From the NCBI GenBank assembly GCA_021787335.1, contig JAJYMC010000003.1:82892-146891 (forward strand): a stretch of DNA of 64,000 bases, given 5' to 3'. A program made the position numbers and the translations under genes. The DNA is from Bacillota bacterium (GTDB taxonomy: Bacteria > Bacillota > Sulfobacillia > JAJYWN01 > JAJZPE01). Position 1 is the first letter of the stretch; every line of letters starts with the position of its first letter. Positions 2,453-64,000 of the stretch are shown here, piece after piece. The notes beneath the pieces were generated by a model, which worked only from the letters and a program-made list of their open reading frames with translations, searched no databases and had not been told where the DNA came from.

Positions 2453-5122
<2,670 letters not shown>

Positions 5123-40378: not shown

Positions 40379-40529
40379 TTATCGGTGCGCCCCTGAGATT
40401 CAAAAAGGACCGCAGCTCAGCGGCCTTGTGATGTCGAAAGCAAGGCAATCCTGTCGAGCGATATGGGTTAACCGGCTCTAGATAACAACCGATTACAGGG
40501 GTGGAACCATATGGCAGGAGGTCTGAAAG

Positions 40530-48532: not shown

Positions 48533-48560
48533 GCGCCCCCCATCGTACGGGGCGCTTTTT
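48533..48560 (+). terminator. Intrinsic terminator
   Basis: GCGCCCC pairs with GGGGCGC around CCATCGTAC, followed by TTTTT. It ends the transcript of the unknown 422-residue protein. Confidence 0.8.
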
Positions 48561-48672
48561 CGTGTGCAGGAAATCCCAGTGCCCCGCAGAAAGTACGCAG
48601 CGAGAGGCGGCACAGCCACGAAGAGACGGCTCCGGCCCGCCGCCCCGCCAGACCCGCGAAGGAGGCTTTCGC

Positions 48673-49140
48673 ATGGCCGTCACCCCGGCCCCCAGAGACG
48701 AACTCTGGACCGCGGCCAAGGGGCTCAGCCCCCGCGTCCGCAAGCTGCGCGACGAGTTCTTCTCGTTCCGCGACCGGGAGTACTTCCGCAACGAGGTCCG
48801 CGCCTACACGACGGGGGCCCCGTGGGACTTCGTCTTCTCCCCGCACAACTGGGGCGTGGTCCCGGAGACCTTCGTCTTCCTCCCGGCCTTCAGCGACTCG
48901 CTCCTGGCCATGGCCGAGCGGGTCGAGGTGCCGGCGGACTTCTTCGAGCGGCCCGTCCCCGTGCGCCGGGCCGTCTTCTTCAACCTCGTCCTCGAAAAAC
49001 ACCTGCCGGTGCAGATCCTCGATGGTGAGCTCATCGTCGGCGGCCAGTTCAACACGGCCCTCTCGCGGGCCCTGGCCAAGCCAGAGGCGGCCGAATGGCG
49101 CAAGGCCGAGGACACCTTCGTCAAGCACGTCGTCGACAGG
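48673..49140 (+). pseudogene. Truncated glycyl-radical enzyme (pyruvate-formate-lyase-like), N-terminal piece only
   Basis: ATG 48673 has AAGGAGG upstream and starts a GC-rich frame typical of the core genome. LSPRVRKLRDEFFSFRDREY and VRRAVFFNLVLEKHLPVQIL with DGELIVGGQF match the N-terminal part of glycyl-radical enzymes of the PFL/dehydratase class. Only about 155 residues of some 780 remain, without the active-site Cys or radical Gly. At about 49137-49142 the sequence switches to the reverse complement of a DUF4279-like gene, leaving a 23-codon nonsense tail to 49209. This is a recombination scar at the edge of the toxin island. Confidence 0.75.
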
Positions 49141-49475
49141 TTAGGTCAAACCCACCTTGGGCGAGACTGGTGGTGTAGCTGCACCAAATGCGCGCATCAT
49201 AGCTCGTAGGCAGCTTCCGTAAGTTTGCCGCTTTATTGCCCAGTATGGCCTCCAATCTGTCTATCATCTCTGACAGGGGTTGTTCTTTCTCTAGGCCAAC
49301 CGTGCAAGACCAAACATCGGTTATAGCTCTTTCCCGAGACCTTGTCGACACACGTTCGCCTTTCTTGTTGCACTTGGGTGGGACCCAGGCCCAGGGTCTT
49401 AGCGATGAGGTCAAAGTCCAGGGCCTCTCCGGTTACGCGTATACCCACAAAGCAAGACACAAATCCCTTCGTCAC
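49138..49475 (-). pseudogene. Decayed DUF4279-like immunity gene, copy 1
   Basis: Two overlapping frames form one gene. GTG 49475 begins GFVSCFVGIRVTGEALDFDL and IAKTLGLGPTQV; after about 49410 the match continues in another frame with ITDVWSCTVGLEKEQPLSEM, IDRLEAILGNKAANLRKL and DARIWCSYTTSLAQGGFDLT. The pattern fits DUF4279, a family seen beside polymorphic toxins. The 3' end is lost at the junction with the glycyl-radical-enzyme fragment, so it is both frameshifted and truncated. Confidence 0.68.
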
Positions 49476-49553
49476 TCAGCGCACCCCATTCTTCCAGTCT
49501 CTGGCCATCTCTAGGAGCTCCTGGCACTCTAATCGGTAGCTCTAGGGGCCCCC

Positions 49554-49998
49554 CTAGTCCCCGTTCCTAACCACCGGATCTTCTCCATCCGCTACCTCAC
49601 CCCAGGACAGGATTGAAAAGGTGCATGAGATCTCGGCCCTGCTTAGAAAGGCAAGGTTGGATGGCGTCAGATCAAATCCACCTTGGGCAAAGTTTGAGGT
49701 GTAACTGCACCATATGCAGACCTCATAGCCAGCAGCCAGGTCCTTCAGCTTGGCAACTCTGTCGCCCAAGGCTGCCTCCAGCCTTGTGAGCATCTCGGCC
49801 ATGGTCGCCTGACGGTCCCGTGGAATGTCATATAGCCAGACGTCTTTGACGGCTGGGTGCTTCGAGTTTGCGAAGACCGGATGCCCCTTTCGAACCTCAC
49901 TAACCGCCTTAAGGCCAAGCTGTCTGGAAATATGGTCAAAATCGAGGTTGCTCTCCAGTCACCCGTACGCTGACCACGCACGACACGAAGCCCTCCAT
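49554..49998 (-). pseudogene. DUF4279-like immunity gene, copy 2, with one N-terminal frameshift
   Basis: ATG 49998 (AAGGAG upstream) reads MEGFVSCVVSVRVTGE and then hits a stop. One missing base after the Glu codon restores NLDFDHISRQLGLKAVSEV, RKGHPVFANSKHPAVKDVWL and MAEMLTRLEAALGDRVAKL, ending with CIWCSYTSNFAQGGFDLTPS and a further 30 residues. It parallels copy 1 along its length and keeps the natural C-terminus. A remade protein starting at the internal ATG 49802 would lack half the domain. Confidence 0.68.
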
Positions 49999-50000
49999 GG

Positions 50001-50038
50001 TTATCTCGCTCCTTCATCTGGGCTCGCAGCGGTCACCT
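50001..50038 (-). repeat. Leader repeat before DUF4279 copy 2
   Basis: About 35 bases here, containing CTTCATCTGGGCTCGCAGCGG, recur with few changes at about 51625-51662 (CTTTCATCTGAGCTCGCAACG). Both lie directly upstream of an immunity-type frame on the minus strand and include its ribosome-site region. Confidence 0.65.
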
Positions 50039-50078
50039 GCTCCTGTTGAGGGTCTGTGGCGTAGCGCGACGTCGAAGG

Positions 50079-50870
50079 TCAATGCCTTTCGGAAATGCCC
50101 CCGGGCGGCGATAACACGGTCCGCAGGTACGGAGGCCCTGCAGACAAGCGGCGTAGACGATCTCGTTTGGACCAGAAGGCAGTGACCATCCTGAGAGGGG
50201 CGGCTACCAGCGAAGGCTTGCCGCCAATTCCGAGTATGGCGCCTGTCTTAAGGTTGGCGTCCCAGCCCCATTCCCCTCCGAACTGTCTCCGGATGAGCTC
50301 GCCTACAAACGCCGCGCATTCGAGCAACAGGTCCCAGTCAGGATTCCCCTGAACCTCCGCATGCCGTTTGAGAAGCTGTCTCTCTATGGCGGCAAGGGAA
50401 TCCTCGTCTTCGAGGCTCAGCCCCAGACGGATGGCTAGCCCCTTTGCCCGGCCTTGTGGATCCACTAGTAGCTCTTGGCCATGCCTCTCAGGCGGCCAAA
50501 GGAGAGGGCCGCCGCTGTTCTCAAGCCATGGAATTCCGAACTTCACCGTGAGATGGACCAGTTCAATCAAAACTGCATCCAATGAAGCACTGTCATGATA
50601 GGTCCACCAACCCGCTATTCCTGTGGGTCTGATGATCTCTGCGACTTGGTCAAGCGCCAGCCCCATCTGGTCTTGCGACGTTGATAGAGTCACCCTCAGA
50701 GAATTATCAGCAGTGAAGCTCTTCTCGAACGTAACGAAATGGTCGACCCCATCCATTCGGCGCTTGAACTGCCATGACAATGTATCGGGTTTACCATCAT
50801 ACGCAAATGCAAACTTACCGAGGCTGGGTTCTACAAGTCTAAGGATTCTTTCTTTCAGTTGGGTGCGCAT
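50079..50870 (-). CDS. Immunity-like protein of unknown family, 263 residues
   Basis: ATG 50870 follows GGGAGGGAAA. The soluble protein starts RTQLKERILRLVEPSLGKFA and has a GGEWGWDANLKTGAILGIGG block near the C-terminus. I do not recognise the family. A second, truncated copy of the last 85 residues lies at 51352-51637. It sits in the run of small genes downstream of Rhs tips, so immunity is the likely role by position. Confidence 0.65.
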   Translation of the reverse strand: MRTQLKERILRLVEPSLGKFAFAYDGKPDTLSWQFKRRMDGVDHFVTFEKSFTADNSLRVTLSTSQDQMGLALDQVAEIIRPTGIAGWWTYHDSASLDAVLIELVHLTVKFGIPWLENSGGPLLWPPERHGQELLVDPQGRAKGLAIRLGLSLEDEDSLAAIERQLLKRHAEVQGNPDWDLLLECAAFVGELIRRQFGGEWGWDANLKTGAILGIGGKPSLVAAPLRMVTAFWSKRDRLRRLSAGPPYLRTVLSPPGGISERH

Positions 50871-50960
50871 CGAGTTTCCCTCCCCTTGGGCCCCCGGGAG
50901 TATTCCAGCGCAGACGTAGCTGAAAGCGAGACGGACTTGGCCGTTTCTCGTTGACAACCC

Positions 50961-51338
50961 TCATCGTTTCCAGCGAAGGGACATCCTGATATCATCCAGT
51001 GCATCCTCGGCATAGCCCCGGGTTTCCGGGTCTTCGAGGAGCTTCCTCAAAACAGGGAGGACCTTCTCATTGTCCAGAGCCCCATGGATACGCGCCAGAT
51101 GGCCGAGACATGTTGCCGAAATAGCCCTGACGGATGCACGCTGGTCTAAGGATAGGCATATGCACTGATCCTGAACCCAACGCCAGTCCGAATCGTGAAA
51201 GGCCACCCGAACAAGCGCGTCACACACCCTGTTCCCGTCGTCGGAACCCAGGGAGGCTATTGCTTCGCGCCGGCTGATGGGTGTTACCTCTTCATACTTC
51301 AGCTCTCGCCTGACCCTTTCCATAGCCCTCGGAGCCAT
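50961..51338 (-). CDS. HEAT-repeat-like small protein, candidate immunity protein
   Basis: A 125-residue helical protein. SRREAIASLGSDDGNRVCDA, SVRAISATCLGHLARIH and VLPVLRKLLEDPETRGYAED have the spacing of HEAT-like repeats that occur as immunity proteins next to contact-dependent toxins. ATG 51338 is chosen; the frame upstream to 51503 overlaps the fragment of another gene and looks non-coding. The ribosome site is weak. Confidence 0.65.
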   Translation of the reverse strand: MAPRAMERVRRELKYEEVTPISRREAIASLGSDDGNRVCDALVRVAFHDSDWRWVQDQCICLSLDQRASVRAISATCLGHLARIHGALDNEKVLPVLRKLLEDPETRGYAEDALDDIRMSLRWKR

Positions 51339-51351
51339 CGGGGCGCCTTCT

Positions 51352-51637
51352 TCAGTGCCGCATCCCCGTTGCACTCGGCGGATAGAGCAGATTCCGCAGC
51401 CCCACATAGCCAAGCAGCAAACTTCGCACTCGATCACGTTTTGACCATAGACCTTCAATGGCGGATAGGGGACGTGCCTTTGCGGCTGGGTCACCTCCGA
51501 CACCGATGATTGCCGGTGTCTTCAATTGCGCGTCCCAGCCCCACTCTCCCCCAAGTTCCTGCCGGTAGAACTCCCCTACAAACGCTGAAGCGTCTAGGAG
51601 CAAAGGCCAGTCGGGTCCTACCGATCCGCTCTTTCAT
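51352..51637 (-). pseudogene. C-terminal fragment of a paralogue of the 263-residue immunity-like protein
   Basis: VGPDWPLLLDASAFVGEFYR, GGEWGWDAQLKTPAIIGVGG and LWSKRDRVRSLLLGY match the C-terminal 85 residues encoded at 50079-50330. The 5' part is missing and replaced by the repeated leader with ATGAAAGAGCGG, whose frame is one base off. This records a past recombination in which an immunity gene was cut. Confidence 0.7.
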
Positions 51638-51639
51638 CT

Positions 51640-51791
51640 GAGCTCGCAACGGTCATCCTTCTTTCAGGCAGCTTTTCGTCCAGTCACGGGACGAGTATCA
51701 ATACGGGGATTAGCAGACCCAGCCCGAAGAGCGCCGTTGCTGAGGAAGTGGCTGTCGACTATTGATCCGACCCAAAGACCGGGCTTTAGTC
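51640..51791. other. Spacer in the immunity cluster
   Basis: 152 bases without a credible gene. The left edge holds the leader repeat described at 50001; I see nothing else of note. Confidence 0.4.
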
Positions 51792-52337
51792 TCAGTAGCG
51801 CGGTCGATCGGTCTTAAGAATGACCGGGGGGGTAAAGCTTGCGGCAACTTGCTCAATGAGCTTGCGCACCTCACTGATGCTTTCTGGGCTGCCGTTGAAG
51901 GCAAAGCCTTTTCCCTCGGCAAACCCTGTCACGATGACGGGTTCGGAAGCCTCGGGTTGATCAGACGGAGTACGGAACCAGAGAAAGGCCCCGTTGTACG
52001 AGTTCCAGACGCTATCATCGACTAATGCCCGCCAAAGCTTCTCCCCCTGTATCTCGTCAGCCGGACGAATCTTCAAGGCCACATCGTCTTGGTCGGCCGG
52101 CTTCTTTTCGAATGGGATGAAGTTGGCCTCGCAGAACTCGCTTATCCAGTCGGATTTGTCCGGCAATATGGCAGTCACGATCAGCACTCGACCTCTGCTA
52201 TACCTAGAGAAGAACTCCTGCATGAAGATGCTTATATCCGGATCGGGGTACCGTTGGCTCAGGGGACACATCAGACATTCAAGCGATTCTGTTATGGCCA
52301 TCGGTTTCAAAGTGATGCATAGTTCAAGGGCCGGCAC
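51792..52337 (-). CDS. Immunity-like protein paired with Rhs cassette 4
   Basis: A 181-residue soluble protein (SISEVRKLIEQVAASFTPPV near the end, GRVLIVTAILPDKSDWISEF in the first half) of no family I know. GTG 52337 has AAAGGA 11 bases upstream. In the frame-restored reading of the Rhs tip the toxin stop lies at 52357-52359, so this gene starts 19 bases after it, a typical toxin-immunity spacing. An in-frame ATG at 52301 is a weaker start. Confidence 0.65.
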   Translation of the reverse strand: MPALELCITLKPMAITESLECLMCPLSQRYPDPDISIFMQEFFSRYSRGRVLIVTAILPDKSDWISEFCEANFIPFEKKPADQDDVALKIRPADEIQGEKLWRALVDDSVWNSYNGAFLWFRTPSDQPEASEPVIVTGFAEGKGFAFNGSPESISEVRKLIEQVAASFTPPVILKTDRPRY

Positions 52338-54515
52338 TTATAACCACATCCTTTGGTCATTCTTCTAGTCTGCGCTCGTGCGACCCCGTTCCAGCTTCGG
52401 TCGCCTCCGCGATTGCCTCTCCCGCGAGTCGCCCCCCCAGGGCCCCAATAATCCCTCCAACCACTCCCCCGACGACCCCCCCCTATCGCAGTACCCACCC
52501 CGGGGAGGATTGCTGTTCCTATGGCTGAGCCAACCTGCGCCCCCACTTCCGCACCAGCTAGTCCACCAGCCCACGAACCAGCAATGCCGCTGGCTTCCTT
52601 AACCGTATTAGGACCTATCGTCCCGTTGTCTTCCTTAACCGCCCGAGCCAAATCGGCGGCATCCAGACCAATGCCGACTCCAACCAAGACGGTGCCTATC
52701 CCCTTGGCAATCGGCTCCGCGTTCTTGGCAATCTTCAAGACTACCTCCGGAACTCGGATGTGGGGATTCTTCTTCCCTTCTACGATGGCCCTAATGACTA
52801 CGTGTGGCGAATCCTTCATTCCCTTGTCGGGGACGTCAACCTTGAAGACCCAATCGCCCACGGGCTTACCATTCTTGACCCGTCCCAGAGTTGAGTCATT
52901 TATCTCTAATACGGCCGACCCTCTTGGGGTTTCCCAATAATACTGTGTACCTTTGAGAGGGTCACGAAGGAAGCCAATTCCCGTTCCTCCGGAGACCGAG
53001 GCTATGACGCCAAAGCCCGCATCGCTGATCTCTGCGTCGTGCGTGCCACCATAACTAGAGCTCCCCGTGGGTTGGCCAACAAGCCCCGTTCTATCGGAAT
53101 ATGAAAGGGGGTTGTCATTTGCGTATGCATACTGACTGGGGCTAGGGAATCCGAGCCCAGCCAGCACCAGCGGGTCAGGCGCTGCAAACCGCCCGAGGCT
53201 CGCGGAGTAGTACCGCGCCCTTAGGTAGACCTGCCCGAAGACCGGGTCATGGTCCTGCCCGCCGAAGCCGAAGGTGTTGCCGTCGTTCAGCTTGTGGGAC
53301 GGGTTCAGGCGGCCGTTGGCGGCCGGAAGCCCGTAGGGGCTGTATGTGTATCTGTCAAAGATCGCACCTTGGGCATCGGCGAGTTGCCGGACACTACCCA
53401 GACCGTCGTAGACGTAGACCGTCGACTGGCCGTCCGGTCCGATGCCGGCCAGGCGCTGCAGGCCGTAGAGGAAGGTGTCCCTCGGCTTGCCCTCACCGTC
53501 ATAGGTGGCTAGGACCTCAGGCAACTGGGCCAGGACGTCGTTGACGTAGTTCAGTTCCAGGTCGTAGACCTTGTTCTTGTTGCTCTTGTCCTTGCCTTTG
53601 GCCTTGCCCTTGCCATGGGCTTCGCCGGAGCGGCCTGGGACGTCGGGCCTGCCGCCCTTTGCGTGCCCCTTGGCGTTGCCTTTCGTGCCATCAGGAGCAT
53701 CTTTCTTTGCCTGGCCGGGTGGAACGTTGGCCGGTCCGTCGCCCTGGCCATTGCCACTCCCGTTCCCGCCGGCGTTACCGTTACCGCCACCGTTGCCTCC
53801 GCCGTTCCCGTTGTCATGTCCGTTGCCGGGGGGGTCTCCGTCCTTTACCTTGTCGGCCTTGTACCAGCCGAGGTGTAGGCCGTTGTCGCCGGGCTCCTCG
53901 ACATGGGCCACGAGCCCGACGCGGTTGCCGTCGCCGTCGTAAGTATAGTCGACGTACTTCTCGTGGTTGGGCCCGCCGTCCTGATATACCTCGACCAGCC
54001 GGCCGGCGGCGTCGTAGGTGTACTCGGTGGTGACCCATTCGTCTCCGGCGGACTCGTCTTCAGCGAGCTGGTCCTCGGTGTCAGTGGCGGGCTCGTCGGC
54101 CTGTGTGCCCGCCGACCCCTTACCCGCGCCCTTCCCGTTGGAGGACGGAGCACCGTTTCCGCTCGAAGTTTCGTCGGTGCCCTCGGGCTTACCTTCTTCT
54201 TCCTGGTCTTCCTCGTCTCCCCGGGGAGCTACGGTGTAGACCAGGCGGCCGTTCCTGTCGTACTCATAGGTCGTCACCACGGGGCCCTTCTCGCCGGTCC
54301 GGGTGCTCGTCACGATCTGCCCGGCCGCGTCGACGTCATAGGTCGTCTCGGAGACCTTGAAGATCCCGTCCTTGGCGTATTCGCCGCGGGCTTCGGAGAT
54401 GAGGTTCCCGGACGCGTCATAGGTGTAACGGTAGAACTCGCCGTTCGGCCGGACGGCCGAGATGAGGCGCCCGGCGGCGTCGTAGGCGTAGTCCGTCCGG
54501 TCGGTGTAGTTCTCT
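52307..54515 (-). CDS. Orphan Rhs 3' cassette 4 with glycine-zipper tip (frameshift at a G8 run)
   Basis: Rhs shell homology begins abruptly at about 54515 (TDRTDYAYDAAGRLIS) without promoter, start or ribosome site, so this is a silent cassette. It carries the acidic insert (DEEDQEEEGKPEGTDE), the Asn/Gly insert, SPYGLPAANGRLNPSHKLND and the core end YANDNPLSYSDRTGL (about 53.1 kb). The tip of about 250 residues starts GTHDAEISDAGFGV and ends in Gly-rich helices (AGAEVGAQVGSAIGTAILPG). The eight C at 52476-52483 shift the frame; with seven, the tip would read IGGVVGGVVGGIIGALGGRL and stop at 52357. Confidence 0.75.
52476..52483 (-). repeat. Homopolymer C8/G8 in the tip of cassette 4
   Basis: Eight C on the plus strand. 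Loss of one base restores a natural hydrophobic Gly-rich C-terminus and puts the stop just before the next gene. Confidence 0.75.
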
Positions 54516-54773
54516 ACCCTCGTAAGGGCTTAGTCCGGCCATAAGAGTGGGAATCCATTGGAGCGACGCCCCCGACACTTCATCAGGGAATCTACATCAG
54601 GAACCCATGTGTCCTCAGCTATTGGCAAGATTTCTCCCCGTCCTCACTTTCCGGTCTACCCCAACGTCGCCCCAGATCGAGACTGACACTGTATAGCTCG
54701 GGTGGCCTACAAGGTGTACTGGGCCACTCGACGCCTCTCAATACTCCCCTGACTCAAGAGCCTTCGCACGCGC
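54516..54773. repeat. Inter-cassette spacer A, partly repeated at 59286-59420
   Basis: Begins with CCCTCGTAAGGGCTTAGTCCGG, half of the palindrome that is complete at 59286-59319, then about 100 bases clearly related to 59321-59420 (CAGGAACCCATGTGTCCTCA against TAGGAACCTATGTGCACCTA). No gene is seen. It joins one Rhs cassette to the immunity gene of the next. Confidence 0.65.
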
Positions 54774-55139
54774 TCACCGCACCGGCCTCCACTTCTCCAT
54801 CTCCTCCAACAGGTGCCCAGTAATGGGCCCCATCAAGGGCCGTGCTGTCTCCAGGATTTTGGGGTCATCACTCAGTCTCTCAAGGACAGTCACGACCAGT
54901 ACCTCCTGCACCAGTTCTTCGCTGCTGCCCATGTCTTCCAGGAAAGCGAAAATCCGCTGTAGCAGGTCATCTTGCGGCGGCTTGGCCAGTAGTCGGAAAA
55001 GAAGAGGGTCAAGAAGATCACCGAAGACCACATGCGGTCCGGGAGCGCCTTCGCCCCACCATTCGATGTACTTCAAATACGAATCTCTAAGCTCTGGTAT
55101 GGCTGTCAACAGGTCCTCAATCAAGGTTGAGTAGTCCAT
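54774..55139 (-). CDS. Candidate immunity protein paired with Rhs cassette 3
   Basis: A 121-residue acidic helical protein: PHVVFGDLLDPLLFRLLAKP, DLLQRIFAFLEDMGSSEELV, VLVVTVLERLSDDPKILETA. It resembles a small family I know as a frequent neighbour of Rhs/WapA tips in Gram-positive bacteria, though I cannot name it with certainty. ATG 55139 follows GGAGG and lies 15 bases after the end of the Rhs cassette 3 frame, the standard toxin-immunity order. Confidence 0.72.
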   Translation of the reverse strand: MDYSTLIEDLLTAIPELRDSYLKYIEWWGEGAPGPHVVFGDLLDPLLFRLLAKPPQDDLLQRIFAFLEDMGSSEELVQEVLVVTVLERLSDDPKILETARPLMGPITGHLLEEMEKWRPVR

Positions 55140-55154
55140 ATGATTCCTCCATCG

Positions 55155-56620
55155 CTATTTTCGCACTCTAGAGAGGGCGTCCCGCAAGTCATCAGCTAAC
55201 GCTTCCGCTATAGCGCGGTCAGAGGGGCTCAAGTCTTCGCTTGCTAGGATCCGCTCCAGATTACGAAGGCGGTCCATGCCTTTTTGGGTATGGAACTTGC
55301 CTTTCACTGGAAGACCCGTTTCGGCCTCATACCTAATGGCGTCCGCTGTCGATCCCGAACCGATCTCTCCGCCCGGGTGGTAGAGTTGGTCGGCGGCTTC
55401 CTGTAACTTAAGGTTGGTCACCGTCGGTTTTGAACGGATTCCAGCCGCTTCCTGGCCCTCCACGCCCTTGACCATCCCAGCCGGTCTGGCTTCAGTCTCT
55501 TGAGTCAGAGCGGTCGCCCGCCCTCCCGCCGAGCTACTGGCGAGCCCTCCCCAGGCCACGAGTTCAACCGCCATGAGAGCGTATGTGCCGGCCGGCCCTG
55601 CTCGCTCTGCCATTTTGTACAGCGGATCCGAGTTGCCTATCCTGGCGTAATCACCCTCGGCAAACGCAGCCACATCCCCAACTGCGCCAATGACATGGCT
55701 AGCGGTTAGGATGGTAGCCACTCCGAAAGCGACCCATCCTATAGGGGTCGCGACGGTGAGCGTGGCCAACATGGCTACTGAAGCGCCAGCCCCGAAGACA
55801 CTTAACCCCGTTTCGAAAGCCGCAGCTGCAACGGTGAGCCCTTTGCCGACCTCTTCCGCCACCAGGCCGCTTGGATCAAGATACGACAACGGGTTATCTT
55901 CACCATACGCATACGGGCTCATCCCCGGAAGCTCGAGACCAGCCATCACCAGCGGGTCGGGGGCCGTGAAGCGCCCGAGCCCCGGTGTGTAATACCTCGC
56001 GCGTAGGTAGACCTGCCCGAAGACCGGATCGTGGTCCTGGCCGCCGAAGCCGAAAGTGTTGCCATCGTTCAGCTTGTGGGACGGGTTCAGGCGGCCGTTC
56101 GCGGCCGGGAGCCCATAGGGACTGTATGTGTACCTGTCAAAGACCGAACCCTGGGCGTCGGCGAGTTGCCTAACACTGCCTAGGCCGTCGTAGACGTAGA
56201 CCGTCGACTGGCCATCCGGCCCGATGCCGGTCAGCCGCTGCAGGCCGTAGACGAAGGTGTCCCTCGGCTGGCCCTGTTCGTCATAGGTGGCCAGGATCTC
56301 TGGCAGCGGGGCCAGGATGTCGTTGACGTAGCTAAGCTCAAGGTCGTAGACCTTGTTCTTGTTGCTCTTATCCTTGCCTTTGGCCTTACCCTTGCCGTGG
56401 ACTTCGCCGGAGCGGCCCCGGCTGCCGGAGCTGCCACCGTTCGCCTGGTCCTTCCCGTTGCCCTTCGAGCCATCTAGGGCATCTTTCTTTGCCTGGCCTG
56501 GCGGGACGTTGGCTGAGCCATCGCCCTGGCCATTATCACCACAGTTCCCCGGTGGGCTCCGTCCCGCACCTTGTCAGGCTTGTACCATCGGAGGTCCTCC
56601 CCAATGTCACCGGGCTCCTC
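55155..56620 (-). CDS. Orphan Rhs 3' cassette 3 with toxin-28-like tip
   Basis: No start codon or promoter serves this frame; shell homology is clear to about 56540 and degenerates by 56620. It includes a shortened Asn/Gly insert, GDGSANVPPGQAKKDALD, and the core end YGEDNPLSYLDPSGL (about 55.9 kb). A hydrophobic pre-tip module follows (AAAFETGLSVFGAGASVAML), shared with cassettes 1 and 2. The tip reads LKLQEAADQLYHPGGEIGSG, STADAIRYEAETGLPVKGKF and SPSDRAIAEALADDLRDALS, a pattern I associate with bacterial toxin type 28. Silent donor cassette by structure. Confidence 0.72.
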
Positions 56621-56653
56621 GAATGGTGTTGTCGCAAGGCCGGCGACCGGACT

Positions 56654-56938
56654 TCATCCTCCGCGATATGCGTTTCCTAGAACTGCATCAATCGTTCTTA
56701 TTGCAGAGTCTAGGGTCTTGACCTCGCTGGTGAGCTGTTTCGCAACCAACGGTTTGATCTCGAGAAGTGCGATTCGTAGTTCCCCCAGAGCTTCGCTTGA
56801 AGTGGTCCAGGCGGACCGAAAGTACCTCTCGAGTCTCAGACTTATGCCTGTTACTCCTGAGGCCAGGGCGAAGTCCTTAAGGTAAAACGCATAGTCGAGG
56901 ACATCCCTGCTGGAACTGAAATTCCTTATTTGGTGCAC
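56654..56938 (-). CDS. Candidate immunity protein paired with Rhs cassette 2
   Basis: A 94-residue helical protein (VLDYAFYLKDFALASGVTGI, LGELRIALLEIKPLVAKQL) of no family I recognise. The GTG start at 56938 is preceded by GAGGGGG and lies 13 bases after the Rhs cassette 2 stop. Size, order and spacing fit an immunity gene. Confidence 0.6.
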   Translation of the reverse strand: MHQIRNFSSSRDVLDYAFYLKDFALASGVTGISLRLERYFRSAWTTSSEALGELRIALLEIKPLVAKQLTSEVKTLDSAIRTIDAVLGNAYRGG

Positions 56939-56950
56939 TGAGCAACCCCC

Positions 56951-59265
56951 TCAATCTGGCATGTGGAAGAACCTGAGTCTGACGGCCCTCGGCTCAGTTA
57001 CTACCTCAATCCCGCCACCCGGGTTAGGGTATATTGGAGGTGCCTCTCTTGTGATGAATGGTTCGTTGGGCCTGAGTTCCCCTCCGACTATGTAGTCTGC
57101 CTTGCCCGTATAGGGGACCCCGTATATGCTATCGTATTCGGGATTGGAAGGGTTCTCCATGGCCCAATGTTGCGCTTCCAACACTCGCTGCTCTCCGAAG
57201 TTACCTTTGCGATACAACAATTCGCCTTGATCCACCTGCTGCCGTGCAGCTAGCGCTGCCGCAGAATCCTCCTGAGCCGCCGGCCCATACGGGGTGGATA
57301 TCGCGGAGTTTCGTGGAACCCTGGACCCAGGGGGAGCTGCACTCACTGACCCCATCCAAGCAAGGCCTTCCGTTCCCGCGAGGATGTATTCTCCTGCCGC
57401 ACCCCCCACCTCGCCTGCCCATTTGTACAGTGGGTCGCCAGTCCCAATCTCGTCGTAGTTCCCCTGTGAGAACGCCGATACGTCGTGAACCGCTCCGATG
57501 AAGTGACTGGCCGTCAGAACGGCGAGTACTGCGAAGCCAGCCCAGCCAACGGGCGTTGTAGCCAACATGACTACGGACATCGCGGCCCCAACCACACTCA
57601 GTCCAGTTACCATCGCCGCATATGTGAAGTCTAGACCTCTATTAAGCTTCTGCCCAATAAGCCCACTTGGGTCAAGATAGGATAGCGGGTTGTCTTGGGC
57701 ATAGGCGTAAGGGCTCATTCCCGGTAGGTCGAGACCCGTGACCACCAGCGGGTCAGGCGCGGTGAATCGCCCGAGCCCCGGTGTATAGTACCTCGCCCGG
57801 AGGTAGACCTGCCCAAAAACGGGATCGTGGTCCTGGCCGCCGAAGCCGAAGGTGTTCCCGTCGTTCAGCTTCTGTGATGGGTTCAGGCGGCCGTTAGCGG
57901 CCGGGAGCCCATAGGGGCTATAGGCGTACCTGTCAAAGACCGCGCCCTGGGCGTCGGCGAGTTGCCTGACGTTGCCCAGGCCGTCGTAGACGTAGACTAT
58001 AGAGTTACCGTCCGACGCGATGCCGGTCAGGCGCTGCAGGCCGTAGACGAAGGTGTCCCTCGGCTGACCCTGTTCGTCGTAGGTGGCCAGGACCTCGGGC
58101 AGCGGGGCCAGGATGTCGTTGACGTAGTTCAGTTCAAGGTCGTAGACCTTGTTCTTATTGTTCCTATTGCTCTTCTCATGGCCCTTGGCTTTGCCCTTGC
58201 CATGGATTTCGCCGGAGCGGCCCGGGATGTCGGACTTGCCGCCCTTCGCCTGGCCCTTGCCGTTGCCCTTCGAGCCTTCGGGGGCATCTTTCTTTGCCTG
58301 GCCGGGCGGGACGTTGGCCGACCCACTGTTGTCCTGACCATTGCCATTTCCACCGGCATTGCCATTCCCGTTCACGCCTGCGTTGCCGTTTCCACCGCTA
58401 TTGCCGTTTCCGTTCCCGCCGGCGTTGCCGTTACCGCCGCCGTTCCCGTTGCCATGTCCGTTGCCGGGGAGGTCCCCGTCCTTTACCTTGTCGGCCTTGT
58501 ACCAGCCGAGGTGCAAGCCGTTGTCACCGGGCTCCTCGACGTGAGCCACGAGCCCGACGCGGTTGCCGTCGCCGTCGTAGGTGTAGTCGGTGTACTTCTC
58601 GCGGTTCGGCCCGCCGTCCTGATACACCTCGACCAGCCGCCCGGCGGCGTCGTGGATGTACTCGGTGGTGAGCCACTCGTCTTCGGCGGACTCCTCTTCA
58701 GCGGTCTGGCTCTCAGCGTCAGAGGAGGTCTCATCGGCCGATGTGGCCGACGAACCCTTACCCGCTCCCTTGCCGTTGGGCGACGGGGCAGTGTTCTCGC
58801 CCGTAGCTTCGTCGGTGCCCTCGGGCTTCCCTTCTTCTTCCTGGTCCTCCTCATCCCCGCGGGGGCCCTCGGCGTAGACTAGGCGCCCGTTGGCGTCATA
58901 TTCGTAGGTCGTTACGATAGGGCCCTTCTCGCCGGTCCGGGTGCTCGTCACGAGCTGCCCGGCCGTATCCACATCATAGGTCGTCTCGGAGACGAGGTCT
59001 CCCTTGGGCTTGGTGTTCTCAACGAGGCTCAGGTTCCCGGCCGGGTCGTAACCGTAGGTGGTAGTCAGGCCGTTCGGCCGGTTCAGCTTGGCCGGGCGGT
59101 CAAGGTCGCCGTAGGCGTATGTGTAGTTCCCCTCGGGGCTGTAGACGGTGTCGAGGCGGGTGAGCTCCGTTCTAAGAGTAAGCGTGACCCCGGTCAGATC
59201 CTTCATCCACTGGCAGGAGTTCGCCTGATCGTAGCCATAGGCCCATGTCGTCAGCCAGCCCCCAA
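56951..59265 (-). CDS. Orphan Rhs 3' cassette 2 with an unassigned tip
   Basis: Shell homology begins at about 59265 (GWLTTWAYGYDQANSCQWMK), next to a palindrome; the open frame has no ribosome site. Compared with cassette 1 it has internal deletions (TGVTLTLRTELTRLDTVY joins two distant repeat units). The full set of inserts is present and the core end is YAQDNPLSYLDPSGL (about 57.68 kb). After the hydrophobic pre-tip module (TGLSVVGAAMSVVMLA) comes a tip of about 110 residues: QGELLYRKGNFGEQRVLEAQ, YGVPYTGKADYIVGG, FITREAPPIYPNPGGGIEVV, RLRFFHMPD. I have seen this type on Rhs proteins but know no activity for it. Confidence 0.75.
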
Positions 59266-59285
59266 TTGAAGGTCTTGACAGTGAA

Positions 59286-59319
59286 GCCGGACTCTGCCCT
59301 CGCGAGGGCTTGGTCCGGC
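59286..59319. repeat. 34-base palindrome at the 5' border of Rhs cassette 2
   Basis: GCCGGAC-TCT-GCCCTCGCGAGGGC-TTG-GTCCGGC: two nested inverted arms around one centre. One half of the same sequence (CCCTCGTAAGGGCTTAGTCCGG) borders cassette 4 at about 54517-54540. The homologous spacer continues to about 59420. Confidence 0.8.
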
Positions 59320-59389
59320 CTTAGGATTGGAATCAATACACTAGGGGCAATGCCACAGAGACTTCACTGGAGAATCCGCCTCTAGGAAC

Positions 59390-59722
59390 CTATGTGCACC
59401 TAGCTACTGACCCCTCCCCGCCCCCGTCGCCCCATGACAAGACTGGCAACCTGCAAGGTATCCCGGTCCTGCTCAGCAAGGTCAAGGTTTTCTGATTGTG
59501 TGACTCGAGTCTTGTTGTCATCTCCGACCTGGTTCCTTGCGGTTCCCGCGGTGCGTCGCAGAGCCAGATGTCCGTGGCTGCAAGATATCTTGCGTTCCCC
59601 AAGACTGGCTGCCCCTTTCTCATCGAGTAGGGTTAAGGCCTAGCTTGTTCGGAGACATAGTCGAAATCCATGTCCTCTCCAGTCACTCGTACGCTTGCCA
59701 CACCCGACACGAAACTCTGCAC
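59390..59722 (-). pseudogene. Decayed DUF4279-like immunity gene, copy 3
   Basis: GTG 59722 (GAGGTCAC upstream) begins QSFVSGVASVRVTGEDMDFD, parallel to copies 1 and 2, then loses frame near 59655. Another frame continues RKGQPVLGNARYLAATDIWL and ends RTGIPCRLPVLSWGDGGGEG, matching the start and end of copy 2 but lacking the middle. Frameshift plus internal deletion make it a pseudogene. Confidence 0.65.
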
Positions 59723-59729
59723 AGTGACC

Positions 59730-60179
59730 TCATCCCATCGTCACACTTTCCGGCTTCAGGATCTTGACCTCGACCACCAAGTCTTCGAAATCCACCTCTC
59801 CAATACCGTTGCTGCAGTGTAACACGTAGACGTCCGGGCTGGTTTTCTCGACGTACATCCCAGCGTTGCCCATTCGAGATTCGATCCCATCTGTCCCCGG
59901 GTACCGCCAGATGTTCCAGAAACCGACGGCCCCTCGTTCCCGACGGGTATGGCATATTAGCCTGACCCTTTGGGGTGCCGTATGGGTCCAGAAGACAGGA
60001 TGAGCGAAACGCTCCTTTCCTATTTCGGGAACCTCCACCTTCCCCTTGCCGCGGTCAACCTCAAACTCAATACCCTGTTCGATCGAGCCTTTGCGCCCGA
60101 GGAATCTGAACTCTACCATCTGCCCGTTGACAATCGGGACCTCCGAGAAGAGACGAACGCTGTGTCCTTTGAAGTCCAA
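59730..60179 (-). CDS. Candidate immunity protein paired with the HNH-tipped Rhs gene
   Basis: A 149-residue soluble, strand-rich protein (LFSEVPIVNGQMVEFRFLG, VYVLHCSNGIGEVDFEDLVV) of no family I recognise. TTG 60179 follows a near-perfect AGGAGGTGAT. It starts 70 bases after the Rhs stop, the first gene downstream of the only Rhs copy in this array that may be expressed, which makes it the probable cognate immunity protein. Confidence 0.65.
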   Translation of the reverse strand: MDFKGHSVRLFSEVPIVNGQMVEFRFLGRKGSIEQGIEFEVDRGKGKVEVPEIGKERFAHPVFWTHTAPQRVRLICHTRRERGAVGFWNIWRYPGTDGIESRMGNAGMYVEKTSPDVYVLHCSNGIGEVDFEDLVVEVKILKPESVTMG

Positions 60180-60249
60180 CGAATCACCTCCTATTTTCCG
60201 TAAGCCAGCTGACCCGATTTCTGTTCATTGCTCTCAGCCCCAAGTCAAT

Positions 60250-63200
60250 TCAAGGTTGCGGCAGCCTTCTGTATGGGTCCACTCTTGCATGGTCTTCGGG
60301 CCACCTCGGAACGAACTCCGTTCCTCCCAATCGACGCGGGATGGGTTCGTGACTGAGTTCCTTGGACTCCATTCCACTCGATGTCTCTCTCTGCGGCGCC
60401 AGCCCTTGTTTCATCCGGGCAACGTTTTTCGATCCGTATTTCTCTGCGGCTCCCGGCGTCGCAGCTTCGTTCTTCCAATACCTCTCCCTGACTGTCGTCC
60501 AGGACGGTTCGTGACCCGCGGCAGTGGGCTTGTAGACGTGATCCCCAACCTGCCAACCCTTGGTGCTGACTTGGCCCTCGGTTGGGACCCGTATCTCAGT
60601 GCTTGTGGCACCAACGCTATTCTCCGCGGTGGCCTCGGTTGCCCCAACCACACTTCTTATTGAGGGGAACCCGAAGACTGCGGTCTCAAATGCCATGAGT
60701 CCATATTGGCCCGCAACCCCAGCGTCCCCCGCCAGATTATAGAGCGGGTCGCCTCCCCCAACTTCGTCATAGTCGCCTTGTGCTAGGGCCGCAACGTCGT
60801 GAACTGCACCAATGAAGTGGCTGGCTGTCAGAATGGCGGCTGCTGCGAAGGCTATCCAGCCAATCGGCGTCGCGACAGTCATTGTGGCCAACATGACAGC
60901 CGACATCGCCGCCCCGACGACACTCAAGCCGGTCTCGGAAACCGCGAGAGCGGCAGTCAGGCCTCTGTTGACCTTCTCTACCACTAGCCCGCTCGGGTCA
61001 AGATAGGCCAATGGGTTATCTTGGCCATATGCGTACGGACTCATCCGCGGAAGATCGAGACCGGCCGCCACCAACGGGTCAGGCGCGGTGAATCGCCCCA
61101 GTCCCGGCGTGTAATACCTCGCCCGGAGGTAGACTTGCCCGAAGACCGGGTCATGGTCCTGGCCGCCGAAGCCGAAGGTGTTGCCGTCGTTCAGCTTGTG
61201 GGACGGGTTCAGGCGGCCGTTCGCGGCCGGGAGGCCATAGGGGCTGTATGTATACCTGTCAAAGACCGCGCCCTGGGCGTCGGCAAGCTGCCTGACGCTG
61301 CCCAGGCCGTCGTAGACGTAGACCGTGGCCTTGCCAGCTGGCCCCATACCGGCCAGGCGCTGCAGGCCATAGACGAAGGTATCCCTCGGCTGGCCCTGTT
61401 CGTCATAGGTCGCCAGAACCTCGGGCAACGGGGCCAGGATGTCGTTGACGTAGCTCAGCTCAAGGTCGTACACCTTGTTCTTGCTGCTCTTGTCCTGCCC
61501 CTTGGCCTTGCCCTTGCCGTGGGCTTCGCCTGAACGGCCACGGCTTCCAGACTTGCCGCCCTTCTCTTGGTTCTTGCCGTTGTCCTTCGCGCCGTCAGAG
61601 GCATCTTTCTTTGCCTGGCCGGGCGGGACGTTGGCTGACCCATTGTTGCCCTGGCCGTTGCCATTGCCATTCCCGCCAGCGTTGCCGTTACCGCCACGGT
61701 TCCCGCTACCTCCACCGTTACCGGGGAGGTCGCCGTCCTTAACCTTGTCAGCCTTGTACCAGCCGAGGTGCAACCCATTGTCGCCGGGCTCCTCGACGTG
61801 GGCCACAAGCCGGACGCGGTTGCCGTCGCCGTCGTATGTGTAGTCGACGTACTTCTCGCTGTTGGGCCCACCGTCCTGATACACCTCGACCAGCCGCCCA
61901 GCCGCGTCGTAGATGTACTCGGTCGTGAGCCAGTCGTTCTCGGGCTCCTCTTCAGCGGTCTGCCCGTCGGCGTCAACGGCCGGCTCGTCGGCCGGCGAGG
62001 TCGACGAGCCCTTCCCCGCTCCCTTGCCGTTGGATGAAGGGCCACCATTCCCGCTCGAAGCTTCGTCGGTGCCCTCGGGCTTCCCTTCTTCTTCCTGATC
62101 TTCCTCGTCCCCGCGGGGGCCCTCGGTGTAGACCAGGCGGCCATTGGCGTCATACTCGTAGCTCGTGACAATGGGGTCCTTCCCGCCGGTCCGGGTGCTC
62201 GCCACGATCTGCCCGGCCACGTCCACGTCCACGTCGTAGGTGGTCTCGGAGACCTTGAAGGTCCCGTCCTTGGCGTATTCGCCGCGGGCTTCGGAGATGA
62301 GGTTCCCGGACGCGTCATAGGTGTAACGGTAGAACTCGCCGTTCGGCCGGACGGCCGATATTAGGCGTCCGGCGGCGTCGTAGGCGTAGTCCGTCCGATC
62401 GGTGTAGTCCTCGGTGACGGTGGCCACCTGGCCGGCGGCGTCATAGTCGTAGACGTAGCTGGAAGCGAGGTCCCCGTTGGGCTTGGTGTTCTCGATCAGG
62501 CTCAGGTCCCCGGCCTGGTCGTAGCCGTAGGTGGTCGTCAGACCGTTCGGCCGGTAGAGCTTTACTGGTCGGTCCAGGTCGTCGTAGGTGTAAGTATAGT
62601 CCCCCTGGGGGCCGTAGACGGTCGACAAGCGCCCGAGGCTGTCATAGCCGTACCTCACGGCGTGCCCTTCGGGATAGGTGACCCCGGTCACCGCGCCCGT
62701 CTGGTCGTACTCGTACCCGACCTTGCGCCCGCTGGGGTCGGTGACCCCGGCCAGGCGGGCGAGGTCGTCATAGGTGTAGAGCGTCACCCCGGTCGGGTCC
62801 TTCATCCACTGGCGCAGGCCGGCCTGGTCGTAACCGTAGGAGACGGTCGTCCCGTCGCCGTAGGCGATGTCGGTCAGCCAGCCGGCCGGGTTATAGGCAT
62901 AGGCGGTCATCGAGCCGTCGGGCGTCGTCTTGGCGGCCATCCGGCCGTCCGGGTTGTAGGCGTAGGAGGTCTGGCGCCCAAGCGGGTCGGCCACGCCGGT
63001 CAGGAGACCACGGGCGTCATAGGAGTAGCGAGTGACGCCGCCTCGCGGGTCGGTGGCCGTCCGTAGGTTGTCTGCGGCGTCGTAGGTCAGCTCCAGGACC
63101 TGGCCGAGCGGGTCGGTCTTGGCCAGGAGGCGTCCGGCCGGGTCGTAGTCGTAAGTCGTCTTGCGGTTGAGTGGGTCGATGACGCTGGCAAGGTTGCCCG

Positions 63201-64000
63201 CCTCGTCGTAGCCCGTGGCCTGGCGGTGGCCGAGGGGGTCGATGGCGGCGGTCAGCCGGTTGAGGGCGTCGTAGTCATAGACCCAGAGCTGCTTGAGTGG
63301 GTCGATGAGCCGGGTGACGTTGCCCGCGGCGTCGCGCTCGTACCGGGTGATCCGGCCGAGCGGGTCGGTGACTGCCGACAGGTTGTCACGCCCGTCATAC
63401 TCATAGACGGTCCAGCCCCCGCGCATGTCCCTGGCCCGGCCAACGCGGCCCGCCTGGTCATACTCGTAGGCGATCGTGGCGCCGGACGGGTAGGTGACGG
63501 TCATCGGCCGATTGGCGGAGTCGTAGGTGATAGCCGTCGTCAGGTCGTTGGCGTCGGTTGCCCGGAGGAGGTTCCCGGCGACGTCGTACTCATAACGGTT
63601 GCCGCCACCGACGGCGTTCCTGGCCACGGTGACGTGACCGGCCGCGTCGTACTCGAAGGAGCTCCTGCCGCCGGACGGGCTCTGGACGGCGGTCAGCCGA
63701 CCGTTGATGTCGTATTCATAACGGGTCACGGCCCCGGTCGGGTCCTTGACGTCCGTGACGTTCCCCTCGGCGTCACGCTCGTAGGTCGTGGTGTTCCCGA
63801 GGGCGTCCGTCTCGGTGAGGACGTTGCCCATGAAGTCATAGGTGTAGAACGCGCCCCGCCCCAAGGAGTCGTGGACCCGGGCCAGGGTGCTGTCGACGTT
63901 GTACTCGTAGGTGACGACGTTTCCGCCCGGCAGCGTCTGCGAGGTTACCTGGCCGCGCCAGTTATAGGCCATGGCCTGGACGCGCCCCAGCGCGTCGGTG
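60250..64000 (-). CDS. Long Rhs/YD-repeat protein with HNH-nuclease-like tip, 5' end outside the window
   Basis: The frame runs unbroken from the right edge, so at least 1,249 codons are visible and the N-terminus is unseen. YD repeats fill 62.4-64 kb. Then come the acidic insert (DEEDQEEEGKPEGTDE, about 62.1 kb), the Asn/Gly insert (about 61.7 kb), and the core end YGQDNPLAYLDPSGL (about 61.0 kb). The hydrophobic pre-tip module is TGLSVVGAAMSAVMLATMTV. The tip ends NVARMKQGLAPQR, SKELSHEPIPRRLGGTEFVP and RWPEDHARVDPYRRLP; the SHE...GG...DHA..DP pattern fits the HNH/endonuclease VII toxin group, hence a probable DNase. Confidence 0.83.
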   Translation of the reverse strand, partial: TDALGRVQAMAYNWRGQVTSQTLPGGNVVTYEYNVDSTLARVHDSLGRGAFYTYDFMGNVLTETDALGNTTTYERDAEGNVTDVKDPTGAVTRYEYDINGRLTAVQSPSGGRSSFEYDAAGHVTVARNAVGGGNRYEYDVAGNLLRATDANDLTTAITYDSANRPMTVTYPSGATIAYEYDQAGRVGRARDMRGGWTVYEYDGRDNLSAVTDPLGRITRYERDAAGNVTRLIDPLKQLWVYDYDALNRLTAAIDPLGHRQATGYDEAGNLASVIDPLNRKTTYDYDPAGRLLAKTDPLGQVLELTYDAADNLRTATDPRGGVTRYSYDARGLLTGVADPLGRQTSYAYNPDGRMAAKTTPDGSMTAYAYNPAGWLTDIAYGDGTTVSYGYDQAGLRQWMKDPTGVTLYTYDDLARLAGVTDPSGRKVGYEYDQTGAVTGVTYPEGHAVRYGYDSLGRLSTVYGPQGDYTYTYDDLDRPVKLYRPNGLTTTYGYDQAGDLSLIENTKPNGDLASSYVYDYDAAGQVATVTEDYTDRTDYAYDAAGRLISAVRPNGEFYRYTYDASGNLISEARGEYAKDGTFKVSETTYDVDVDVAGQIVASTRTGGKDPIVTSYEYDANGRLVYTEGPRGDEEDQEEEGKPEGTDEASSGNGGPSSNGKGAGKGSSTSPADEPAVDADGQTAEEEPENDWLTTEYIYDAAGRLVEVYQDGGPNSEKYVDYTYDGDGNRVRLVAHVEEPGDNGLHLGWYKADKVKDGDLPGNGGGSGNRGGNGNAGGNGNGNGQGNNGSANVPPGQAKKDASDGAKDNGKNQEKGGKSGSRGRSGEAHGKGKAKGQDKSSKNKVYDLELSYVNDILAPLPEVLATYDEQGQPRDTFVYGLQRLAGMGPAGKATVYVYDGLGSVRQLADAQGAVFDRYTYSPYGLPAANGRLNPSHKLNDGNTFGFGGQDHDPVFGQVYLRARYYTPGLGRFTAPDPLVAAGLDLPRMSPYAYGQDNPLAYLDPSGLVVEKVNRGLTAALAVSETGLSVVGAAMSAVMLATMTVATPIGWIAFAAAAILTASHFIGAVHDVAALAQGDYDEVGGGDPLYNLAGDAGVAGQYGLMAFETAVFGFPSIRSVVGATEATAENSVGATSTEIRVPTEGQVSTKGWQVGDHVYKPTAAGHEPSWTTVRERYWKNEAATPGAAEKYGSKNVARMKQGLAPQRETSSGMESKELSHEPIPRRLGGTEFVPRWPEDHARVDPYRRLPQP

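What the first reader, a model, noticed from the sequence alone, without database searches (positions are those of the whole stretch)
49138..64000. Rhs toxin array: one expressed gene feeding on three silent tip cassettes
All four minus-strand Rhs copies end in the same order (acidic insert, Asn/Gly insert, the segment SPYGLPAANGRLNP, DPVFGQVYLRARYY, core end), then each has a different tip followed by a different small gene. Only the rightmost has a long upstream shell; the others begin mid-shell with no start or ribosome site. The shared shell gives long homology for recombination, so the expressed gene could swap its tip and the immunity gene with it. Tip exchange is known for Rhs and CDI loci; a compact four-tip store with immunity genes in a GC-rich, probably anaerobic Bacillota is less described.
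Basis: partly seen in the sequence, partly recalled or inferred. Interest (0 to 1): 0.82.

Follow-up and report, generated by a model that had tools for sequence, protein, structure and literature searches.

The report
Toxin gene with spare toxin tips
A bacterium, likely an uncultured member of the Bacillota, carries a large predicted toxin gene followed by three headless spare toxin ends, each with its own likely antidote gene; this layout is already known from other bacteria, and here the pieces were likely exchanged among several copies spread over the genome rather than only next door.

Summary
Window 49138-64000 (minus strand) holds one Rhs gene and three 5'-truncated Rhs cassettes with four tips and four unrelated small downstream genes. 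Two of the four tip/small-gene pairs (2 and 4) recur side by side elsewhere, so they are very likely toxin-immunity pairs. Corrections: the contig ends at base 64000, inside the rightmost gene, so its start is unseen and 'the expressed gene' is unverified; cassette 2 lacks the acidic insert; tip 1 is frame-broken. The genome has 15 Rhs matches on five contigs. Array shells are 82-85% identical in DNA, and each is closer to a copy at another locus than to its neighbours, so they are not tandem duplicates. Shells look mosaic (PHI p 0.001 for 7 copies, but 0.23 for 8 and 0.86 for the four array copies). Private changes in the three silent shells are as constrained as in two full copies. No 500-bp stretch shared with the head gene exceeds 0.89 identity, which argues against frequent local switching today. 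This is tip displacement with orphan tip-immunity cassettes, known from Enterobacteriaceae and already reported in Bacillota (S. suis WapA, Listeria LrhA): a new member of a known kind.

The parts
60250..64000 (-). Head Rhs gene, 3' part (1249 codons open; cut by the contig end at 64000). Shell about 60952-64000, tip 4 about 60250-60951. Tip 4 is predicted to be an HNH DNase of colicin E7 type
   Evidence: ORF; contig end; RHS_repeat E 1.9e-111; colicin E7 DNase match of a two-sequence profile E 6e-7; Pfam matches of the tip alone are below cut-off
59730..60179 (-). Likely immunity gene for tip 4 (149 aa, TTG start, GGAGGTG just upstream by eye)
   Evidence: a homologue (40%) follows a tip-4 homologue (55%) in L075
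59242..59729 (-). Spacer with a decayed DUF4279-like remnant (by eye) and a palindrome at 59286-59319; 59292-59409 resembles the spacer before cassette 1
   Evidence: a 29-base pattern of the palindrome occurs at two places in the genome with up to 3 mismatches
57662..59241 (-). Cassette 3 shell: 5'-truncated, in-frame internal deletions of 126 and 213 nt, no start signal
56951..57661 (-). Tip 3 (no Pfam family, NCBIfam matches far below cut-off; homologue P0121 46%)
56654..56938 (-). Likely immunity gene for tip 3 (94 aa), by position only
   Evidence: no family
55865..56622 (-). Cassette 2 shell: starts after the acidic insert, 5' end frame-broken
55155..55864 (-). Tip 2
   Evidence: homologues in L072 and L073
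54774..55139 (-). Likely immunity gene for tip 2 (121 aa), DUF7674
   Evidence: PF24722 E 3.7e-12; homologues directly after tip-2 homologues in L072 (49%) and L073 (43%)
54512..54773 (-). Spacer; 54512-54624 resembles the spacer before cassette 3 (71% over 118 columns)
53099..54512 (-). Cassette 1 shell: 5'-truncated; the 478-codon piece examined has no in-frame stop
52307..53098 (-). Tip 1, with a frame break near 52470-52490
   Evidence: homologue P0123 40% over 74% of the stretch searched
51792..52337 (-). Likely immunity gene for tip 1 (181 aa), by position; a homologue (43%) stands without that tip in the C52 locus
49139..51791 (-). Orphan immunity-like block: gene 50079-50957, a partial copy of it at 51355-51618 (55% over 88 residues), HEAT-like ORF 50961-51503 (just below Pfam cut-off), DUF4279 copy 49124-49414 (above cut-off) and a weaker one at 49557-49802 (below cut-off)
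48548..49138 (+). Truncated glycyl-radical-enzyme gene (N-terminal part), the left border of the array; 90.5% DNA identity to the 5' end of the intact gene beside the C27 Rhs gene
40867..46479 (+). Second, more distant Rhs gene (Ntox44 tip) with DUF6531; its signal-peptide stretch upstream (by eye) is in another frame

Best explanation
This is an array of one Rhs polymorphic-toxin gene, whose 5' part is lost at the contig end, and three 5'-truncated Rhs cassettes, each with a different predicted toxin tip and a likely cognate immunity gene, most likely built by repeated displacement of tips through homologous recombination between Rhs shells that lie on several contigs of this genome. Shown: anatomy, shell homology, lack of visible start signals, independent co-occurrence of two of the four tip-immunity pairs elsewhere, statistical traces of recombination across loci, and constraint on the silent shells. 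Inferred: each new tip would have entered an Rhs gene by crossover in the conserved shell and pushed the old tip with its immunity gene downstream; the small genes (ribosome sites clear by eye for 2 and 4, weaker for 1 and 3) would keep protecting the cell; and because silent shells look as constrained as full copies, the cassettes were likely part of working genes until recently on the scale of their divergence. Untested: which gene is expressed, and whether any cassette is ever moved back onto a full-length gene.
For: Shell clade: 82-85% DNA identity within the array, 64-69% to the window's plus-strand Rhs gene. Pairs: tip 2 + DUF7674 homologues are adjacent in L072 and L073; tip 4 + imm 4 homologues are adjacent in L075. 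Fifteen matches on five contigs. Each array member's nearest copy is at another locus in 0.88-1.00 of 1000 bootstraps on the 722 columns shared by 8 copies; within-array minus array-to-other identity is -0.021 (95% -0.032 to -0.011). Mosaicism: PHI p 0.001 for 7 copies and for 5 long copies; 25 of 336 triplets at the floor p of 0.0005; identical runs of 97 bp (cassette 1-head gene) and 95 bp (cassette 3-C44 full, gap columns dropped; 84 bp) against shuffle means of 32 and 38. Constraint: private changes nonsynonymous 31 of 70 in cassettes 1-3 and 29 of 67 in the head gene plus C27; neutral expectation 0.72 at ts/tv 2. GC falls from 0.63-0.66 in the array shells to 0.58-0.60 in tips and 0.51-0.55 in the small genes, a drop also shown for the Serratia tip array of PMC2935791.
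Against: PHI is not significant for all 8 copies (p 0.23) or for the 4 array copies (p 0.86), with 117 and 35 informative sites. Uneven conservation along the shell can also make runs of identity. Recombination between shells need not have moved tips. No near-identical shell tract with the head gene and no sister-strain comparison, so no exchange event is seen directly. Tips 1 and 3 and their small genes are paired by position only. In the published Serratia and E. coli arrays the fragment cores match the gene next door (PMC2935791); here they do not.
Confidence: 0.8

Rival explanations
1. Local reservoir: the head gene regularly swaps its tip and immunity gene with the three cassettes next to it, as a switch.
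For: Shared shells and a 97-bp identical run between cassette 1 and the head gene; evidence for the mechanism exists in Salmonella (PMC3967940, passages).
Against: Best 500-bp identity of cassettes 1, 2 and 3 to the head gene is 0.868, 0.886 and 0.868; array members are closer to other loci than to each other; the head gene's start is not in the assembly.
Confidence: 0.15
2. Immunity bank: the array is kept because its four likely immunity genes plus the orphan block protect against relatives' toxins; the headless tips are passengers.
For: Small genes 2 and 4 have clear ribosome sites by eye while the tips have no start; DUF4279 and other immunity-like genes without tips follow; tip 1 is frame-broken.
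Against: Silent shells are as constrained as full copies and tips 2 and 3 have open frames, so the tip parts show little decay yet. Not exclusive with the best explanation.
Confidence: 0.35
3. Tandem duplication of one Rhs gene followed by divergence of the tips in place.
For: Head-to-tail arrangement of homologous shells; tips 2, 3 and 4 share a pre-toxin stretch.
Against: Array members are less alike to each other (0.835) than to copies at other loci (0.856); DNA identity of tips 2, 3 and 4 falls to 0.29-0.45 beyond the pre-toxin stretch, and two pairs occur elsewhere.
Confidence: 0.04
4. Assembly artefact: the array is a mis-joined set of reads from repeated shells of several loci or strains.
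For: Draft genome of 65 contigs with 2.93% contamination; contigs C8, C27, C42 and C52 begin or end in or beside Rhs copies.
Against: The eight shell copies differ by 10-18%, well above read-error level; the protein database lists cassette 3's 751-aa protein on 2 contigs, the longer of 251455 bases, longer than C8, which suggests a second assembly of it.
Confidence: 0.06
5. Each cassette is a separate small expressed toxin gene with its own promoter.
For: Open frames of 668, 264 and 751 codons (cassettes 1, 2, 3) from internal start codons.
Against: No ribosome site by eye at the possible starts, stops upstream near the junctions, promoter-like matches at chance level and none just before a cassette. 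The promoter scan covers sigma-70 type only.
Confidence: 0.05

Closest known systems
Rhs C-terminal tip displacement arrays of Enterobacteriaceae (Serratia marcescens Db11, E. coli clade IV; PMC2935791, passages and section 10 read)
   Same: One rhs gene followed by fragments with partial cores of varying length and dissimilar tips; in Serratia three fragments, only one with a start and two degenerated; GC drop in tips
   [quoted passage not shown] coli); here cassette shells align to the head gene at 76-86% amino acid identity and are closer to copies at other loci
Salmonella Typhimurium LT2 rhs main / rhs-CT orphan (PMC3967940, passages read)
   Same: Headless orphan tip with its immunity gene downstream of a main rhs gene; evidence for recombination with the main gene was given there
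   Different: 95% identity over 522 bp there; here 0.87-0.89 at best over 500 bp with the head gene, and no switching observed
Streptococcus suis wapA loci with truncated duplications (PMC12704120, passages and section 23 read)
   Same: Bacillota; full-length Rhs/WapA plus two truncated duplications per locus in strain WUSS351, each with a CT/immunity pair; in strain K56-WJ the downstream truncated copy could not be delivered
   Different: Here three cassettes follow one gene and related copies lie on further contigs
Listeria seeligeri truncated lrhA genes (PMC10327511, passages and section 21 read)
   Same: Bacillota; truncated Rhs copies lacking DUF6531, conserved repeats, divergent toxin ends, proposed as a template for diversification
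   Different: Each stands behind an essC type VII secretion variant; no such array was described in the section read
Neisseria mafB-CT silent cassettes (PMC4287609, passages read)
   Same: Full-length toxin gene followed by CT cassettes, some without initiation codon, each with an immunity gene
   Different: MafB toxins are predicted to be globular, unlike Rhs and CdiA (passage)

Membership tests
Rhs polymorphic toxin genes | RHS/YD repeats | tested here: met
   PF05593: head gene 1.9e-111, cassette 3 2.7e-14, cassette 1 3.7e-7; cassette 2 by DNA homology only (no Pfam hit in the piece given)
Rhs polymorphic toxin genes | N-terminal DUF6531 and export signal on the head gene | not testable with these tools
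   Contig C8 ends inside the head gene. Four DUF6531 matches in the genome: C8 plus strand, C27, C44, C42. Signal peptides judged by eye, no predictor run
Rhs polymorphic toxin genes | Variable tip after a conserved core end | tested here: met
   Core ends in DPSGL (DRTGL in cassette 1), then four different tips
Rhs polymorphic toxin genes | Cognate immunity gene directly downstream of the tip | tested here: inconclusive
   Pairs 2 and 4 recur side by side elsewhere; pairs 1 and 3 by position only; protection not assayed
Orphan/displaced rhs-CT arrays | Downstream fragments with partial core, tip and likely immunity gene, without translation start | tested here: met
Orphan/displaced rhs-CT arrays | Fragment cores match the core of the adjacent main gene better than other rhs genes of the genome (true of the Serratia and E. 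coli examples, not required of every array) | tested here: not met
   Nearest copy lies at another locus for all four array members
Orphan/displaced rhs-CT arrays | Tips seen attached in one strain and displaced in another | not testable with these tools
   No sister strain found. Besides the own genome, of 397 genomes tips 1 and 3 matched 0, tip 2 matched 2, tip 4 matched 1
Silent-cassette switching system | Near-identical shared tracts allowing frequent exchange with the expressed gene | tested here: not met
   Maximum 500-bp identity of cassettes 1-3 to the head gene 0.868-0.886; to any of three full copies up to 0.916

The most novel reading that the evidence does not exclude
The genome runs a dispersed tip-shuffling network: headless cassettes at several loci are not dead relics but cycle through full-length genes anywhere in the genome, so their shells stay under full selection while silent, and the array acts as one node of a genome-wide toxin repertoire.
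Probability: 0.2. Interest if true: 0.6.

Novelty: new member of a known kind. Interest (0 to 1): 0.32.

Why it matters
If the constraint on silent shells is real, it gives a simple sequence test that separates fresh or cycling cassettes from decaying relics in tip arrays: compare private nonsynonymous changes in silent and full copies. The array also adds two tip-immunity pairs with independent support (tip 2 with DUF7674; a colicin-E7-like DNase tip with its partner) and a genome in which exchange seems to cross loci.

Tried and rejected
Tried without result: Pfam and NCBIfam give no family above cut-off for the four tips or for small genes 1, 3 and 4; PADLOC gives none for the 8 proteins tried, which did not include tips 1 and 3. 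The structure model of tip 2 (mean pLDDT 71) has no PDB match with E <= 0.001. The model of tip 3 (mean pLDDT 53) was too poor to search. The genome-contig scan gave 5 loci, 3 of them from one MAG, SKS1.bin113, too distant to show tip swaps. The palindrome before cassette 3 was considered as a recombination site: a 29-base pattern of it occurs only before cassettes 1 and 3, and before cassette 1 its second outer arm is missing (by eye), so it looks like shared old spacer. A common 5' break point was considered: three shells (C52, cassette 3, C44 cassette) start within about 60 bp of one another by BLAST, but two share a change not seen in the full copies (by eye) and may share ancestry. Left out of the shell statistics: the scrambled partial copy at the end of C27, the C42 N-terminal piece, and the plus-strand gene (other clade). 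C44 full was in the alignments but not pooled, being frame-broken; its private changes were 9 synonymous and 10 nonsynonymous.

Full report
What was checked. The window is G000:C8:82892-146891 and contig C8 ends at base 146891, the window's last base. The genome is a 3.55-Mb draft of 65 contigs, 96.88% complete, 2.93% contaminated, likely a metagenome bin; the best matches in the named genome collection are from a Bacillota MAG, SKS1.bin113 (3 of 5 loci). So the rightmost Rhs gene is cut by the assembly, and its start cannot be read here. The genome has 15 matches to the window's plus-strand Rhs protein, on contigs C8, C27, C42, C44 and C52, and four DUF6531 matches. Three of these belong to genes seen to their 3' side (C8 plus strand, C27, C44); the fourth, on C42, runs off the contig start. 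It is the natural candidate for the head gene's N-terminus, but the two parts were not joined.

Anatomy. On the minus strand, from 64000 leftwards: head gene shell, tip 4, small gene 4; spacer; cassette 3 (shell, tip 3, small gene 3); cassette 2; spacer; cassette 1; then an orphan immunity-like block down to 49139. Cassette shells start at different points of the shell. Cassette 3 has in-frame deletions of 126 and 213 nt, cassette 2 starts after the acidic insert with a frame-broken 5' end, and cassette 1's shell piece is open over 478 codons while its tip is frame-broken near 52470-52490. No cassette has a usable start by eye, and promoter-like matches are at chance level, 3 against 3.2. At 49138 the array meets the truncated 5' part of a glycyl-radical-enzyme gene, 90.5% identical in DNA to the intact gene that lies divergently beside the C27 Rhs gene: a rearrangement scar.

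Tips and immunity. Tip 2 and its DUF7674 neighbour recur together in L072, at the end of a 467-aa protein without visible Rhs repeats (not family-scanned), and in L073, after an Rhs core end recognised by eye (no Pfam hit); these are 2 of the 397 other genomes searched. Tip 4 and small gene 4 recur together in L075, beside an Rhs gene though the tip's ORF is in another frame than that gene; this is 1 of 397 other genomes. A two-sequence profile of tip 4 matches colicin E7 DNase structures at E 6e-7. Tips 1 and 3 matched none of the 397 other genomes, but have protein-database homologues at 40% and 46%. Tips 2, 3 and 4 share a pre-toxin stretch; DNA identity among them falls from 0.77-0.80 in the first 60 columns of the alignment, inside the shell end, to 0.29-0.45 in columns 421-480.

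Where the shells come from. Eight shell copies were aligned: head gene, cassettes 1-3, C44 full, C44 cassette, C27 full, C52. On the 722 columns shared by all, identity within the array is 0.835, array to other loci 0.856, among other loci 0.869; the head gene and cassettes 1, 2 and 3 have their nearest copy at another locus in 1.00, 0.92, 0.88 and 0.99 of 1000 bootstraps. This speaks against simple tandem duplication and differs from the Serratia and E. coli arrays, where fragment cores match the adjacent gene (PMC2935791, section 10). PHI gives p 0.001 for seven copies and for the five long ones, but 0.23 for all eight and 0.86 for the four array copies, where informative sites are fewer than in the seven-copy test. 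Of 336 triplet tests, 25 reach the floor of 0.0005 and 141 are below 0.05, uncorrected and not independent. Of 15 silent-full pairs, 8 have a longest identical run with shuffle p <= 0.05 and 11 a best 200-bp window with p <= 0.05, uncorrected; uneven conservation may add to both. Cassettes 1, 2 and 3 share with the head gene at best 0.868, 0.886 and 0.868 identity over 500 bp.

Are the silent shells dead? Pairwise dN/dS in the structured shell is 0.05-0.22 for all 28 pairs, silent or not. For changes private to one copy, cassettes 1-3 have 31 nonsynonymous of 70, the head gene and C27 together 29 of 67, and the neutral expectation is 0.72 at an assumed ts/tv of 2 (binomial 6e-7 and 5e-7; Fisher between them 1.0); C52 added to the silent set gives 38 of 89. 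No stop was seen in the shell pieces of cassettes 1-3, but only 2.2 would be expected under neutrality (P of none 0.12). The C44 cassette, which has lost its tip, has 22 of 36, not different from neutral (p 0.09), and one in-frame stop; its contrast with the other silent copies is only suggestive (p 0.08). So cassettes 1-3 have probably not been ageing as junk for most of their divergence: they were parts of working genes until recently, or they cycle through them. These data do not separate the two.

Other full-length copies. C27 carries an open 2028-codon gene with DUF6531 and a Tox-REase-7 tip. The C44 full-length gene changes frame twice in the core end. In the plus-strand gene of this window the signal-peptide stretch (by eye) lies in another frame than the main ORF. 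So the one gene seen open from end to end is on C27, not in this array.

Known background. Displaced tips in arrays were described in 2009 (PMC2935791), expression of an orphan tip after recombination in 2014 (PMC3967940), silent CT cassettes in Neisseria (PMC4287609), truncated Rhs genes as a possible template in Listeria (PMC10327511), and truncated WapA duplications with CT/immunity pairs in Streptococcus suis (PMC12704120). Passages of all five were read, and one section each of PMC2935791, PMC10327511 and PMC12704120. The array is a further member of this kind. What stands out is the spread over loci and the constraint on silent shells.

Noticed in passing
window 48548-49138: Truncated 5' part of a glycyl-radical-enzyme gene (90.5% DNA identity to the intact gene beside the C27 Rhs gene) abuts the array: a duplication or rearrangement scar at an Rhs locus.
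   Followed up: partly
window 40400-46479 (+): Second Rhs gene with Ntox44 tip; its signal-peptide stretch (by eye) is out of frame with the main ORF.
   Followed up: partly
L026 (C44:224000-240000): Full-length Rhs gene with frame changes in the core end, followed by a cassette whose tip is gone and whose shell runs into a DUF4279-like gene start (by eye).
   Followed up: partly
window 60670-60987, 55521-55865, 57293-57661 (-): Hydrophobic pre-toxin stretch shared by tips 2, 3 and 4, also recognisable by eye in P0005 and P0006; no Pfam family above cut-off in the window's three tips.
   Followed up: partly
L027 (C52) 3436-4988: Relatives of the window's orphan block (gene fragment, HEAT-like gene by eye, small gene 1 homologue) in another order behind another Rhs cassette.
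   Followed up: no
L066 (SKS1.bin113): This Rhs locus lies between an acylase-like stretch resembling the one beside C42's Rhs N-terminus and an S8 peptidase like that beside the C44 copy, suggesting rearrangements around Rhs loci (by eye).
   Followed up: no
P0001 (cassette 3 protein): The protein database lists it on 2 contigs, the longer of 251455 bases; that contig could show the missing 5' end of the head gene.
   Followed up: no
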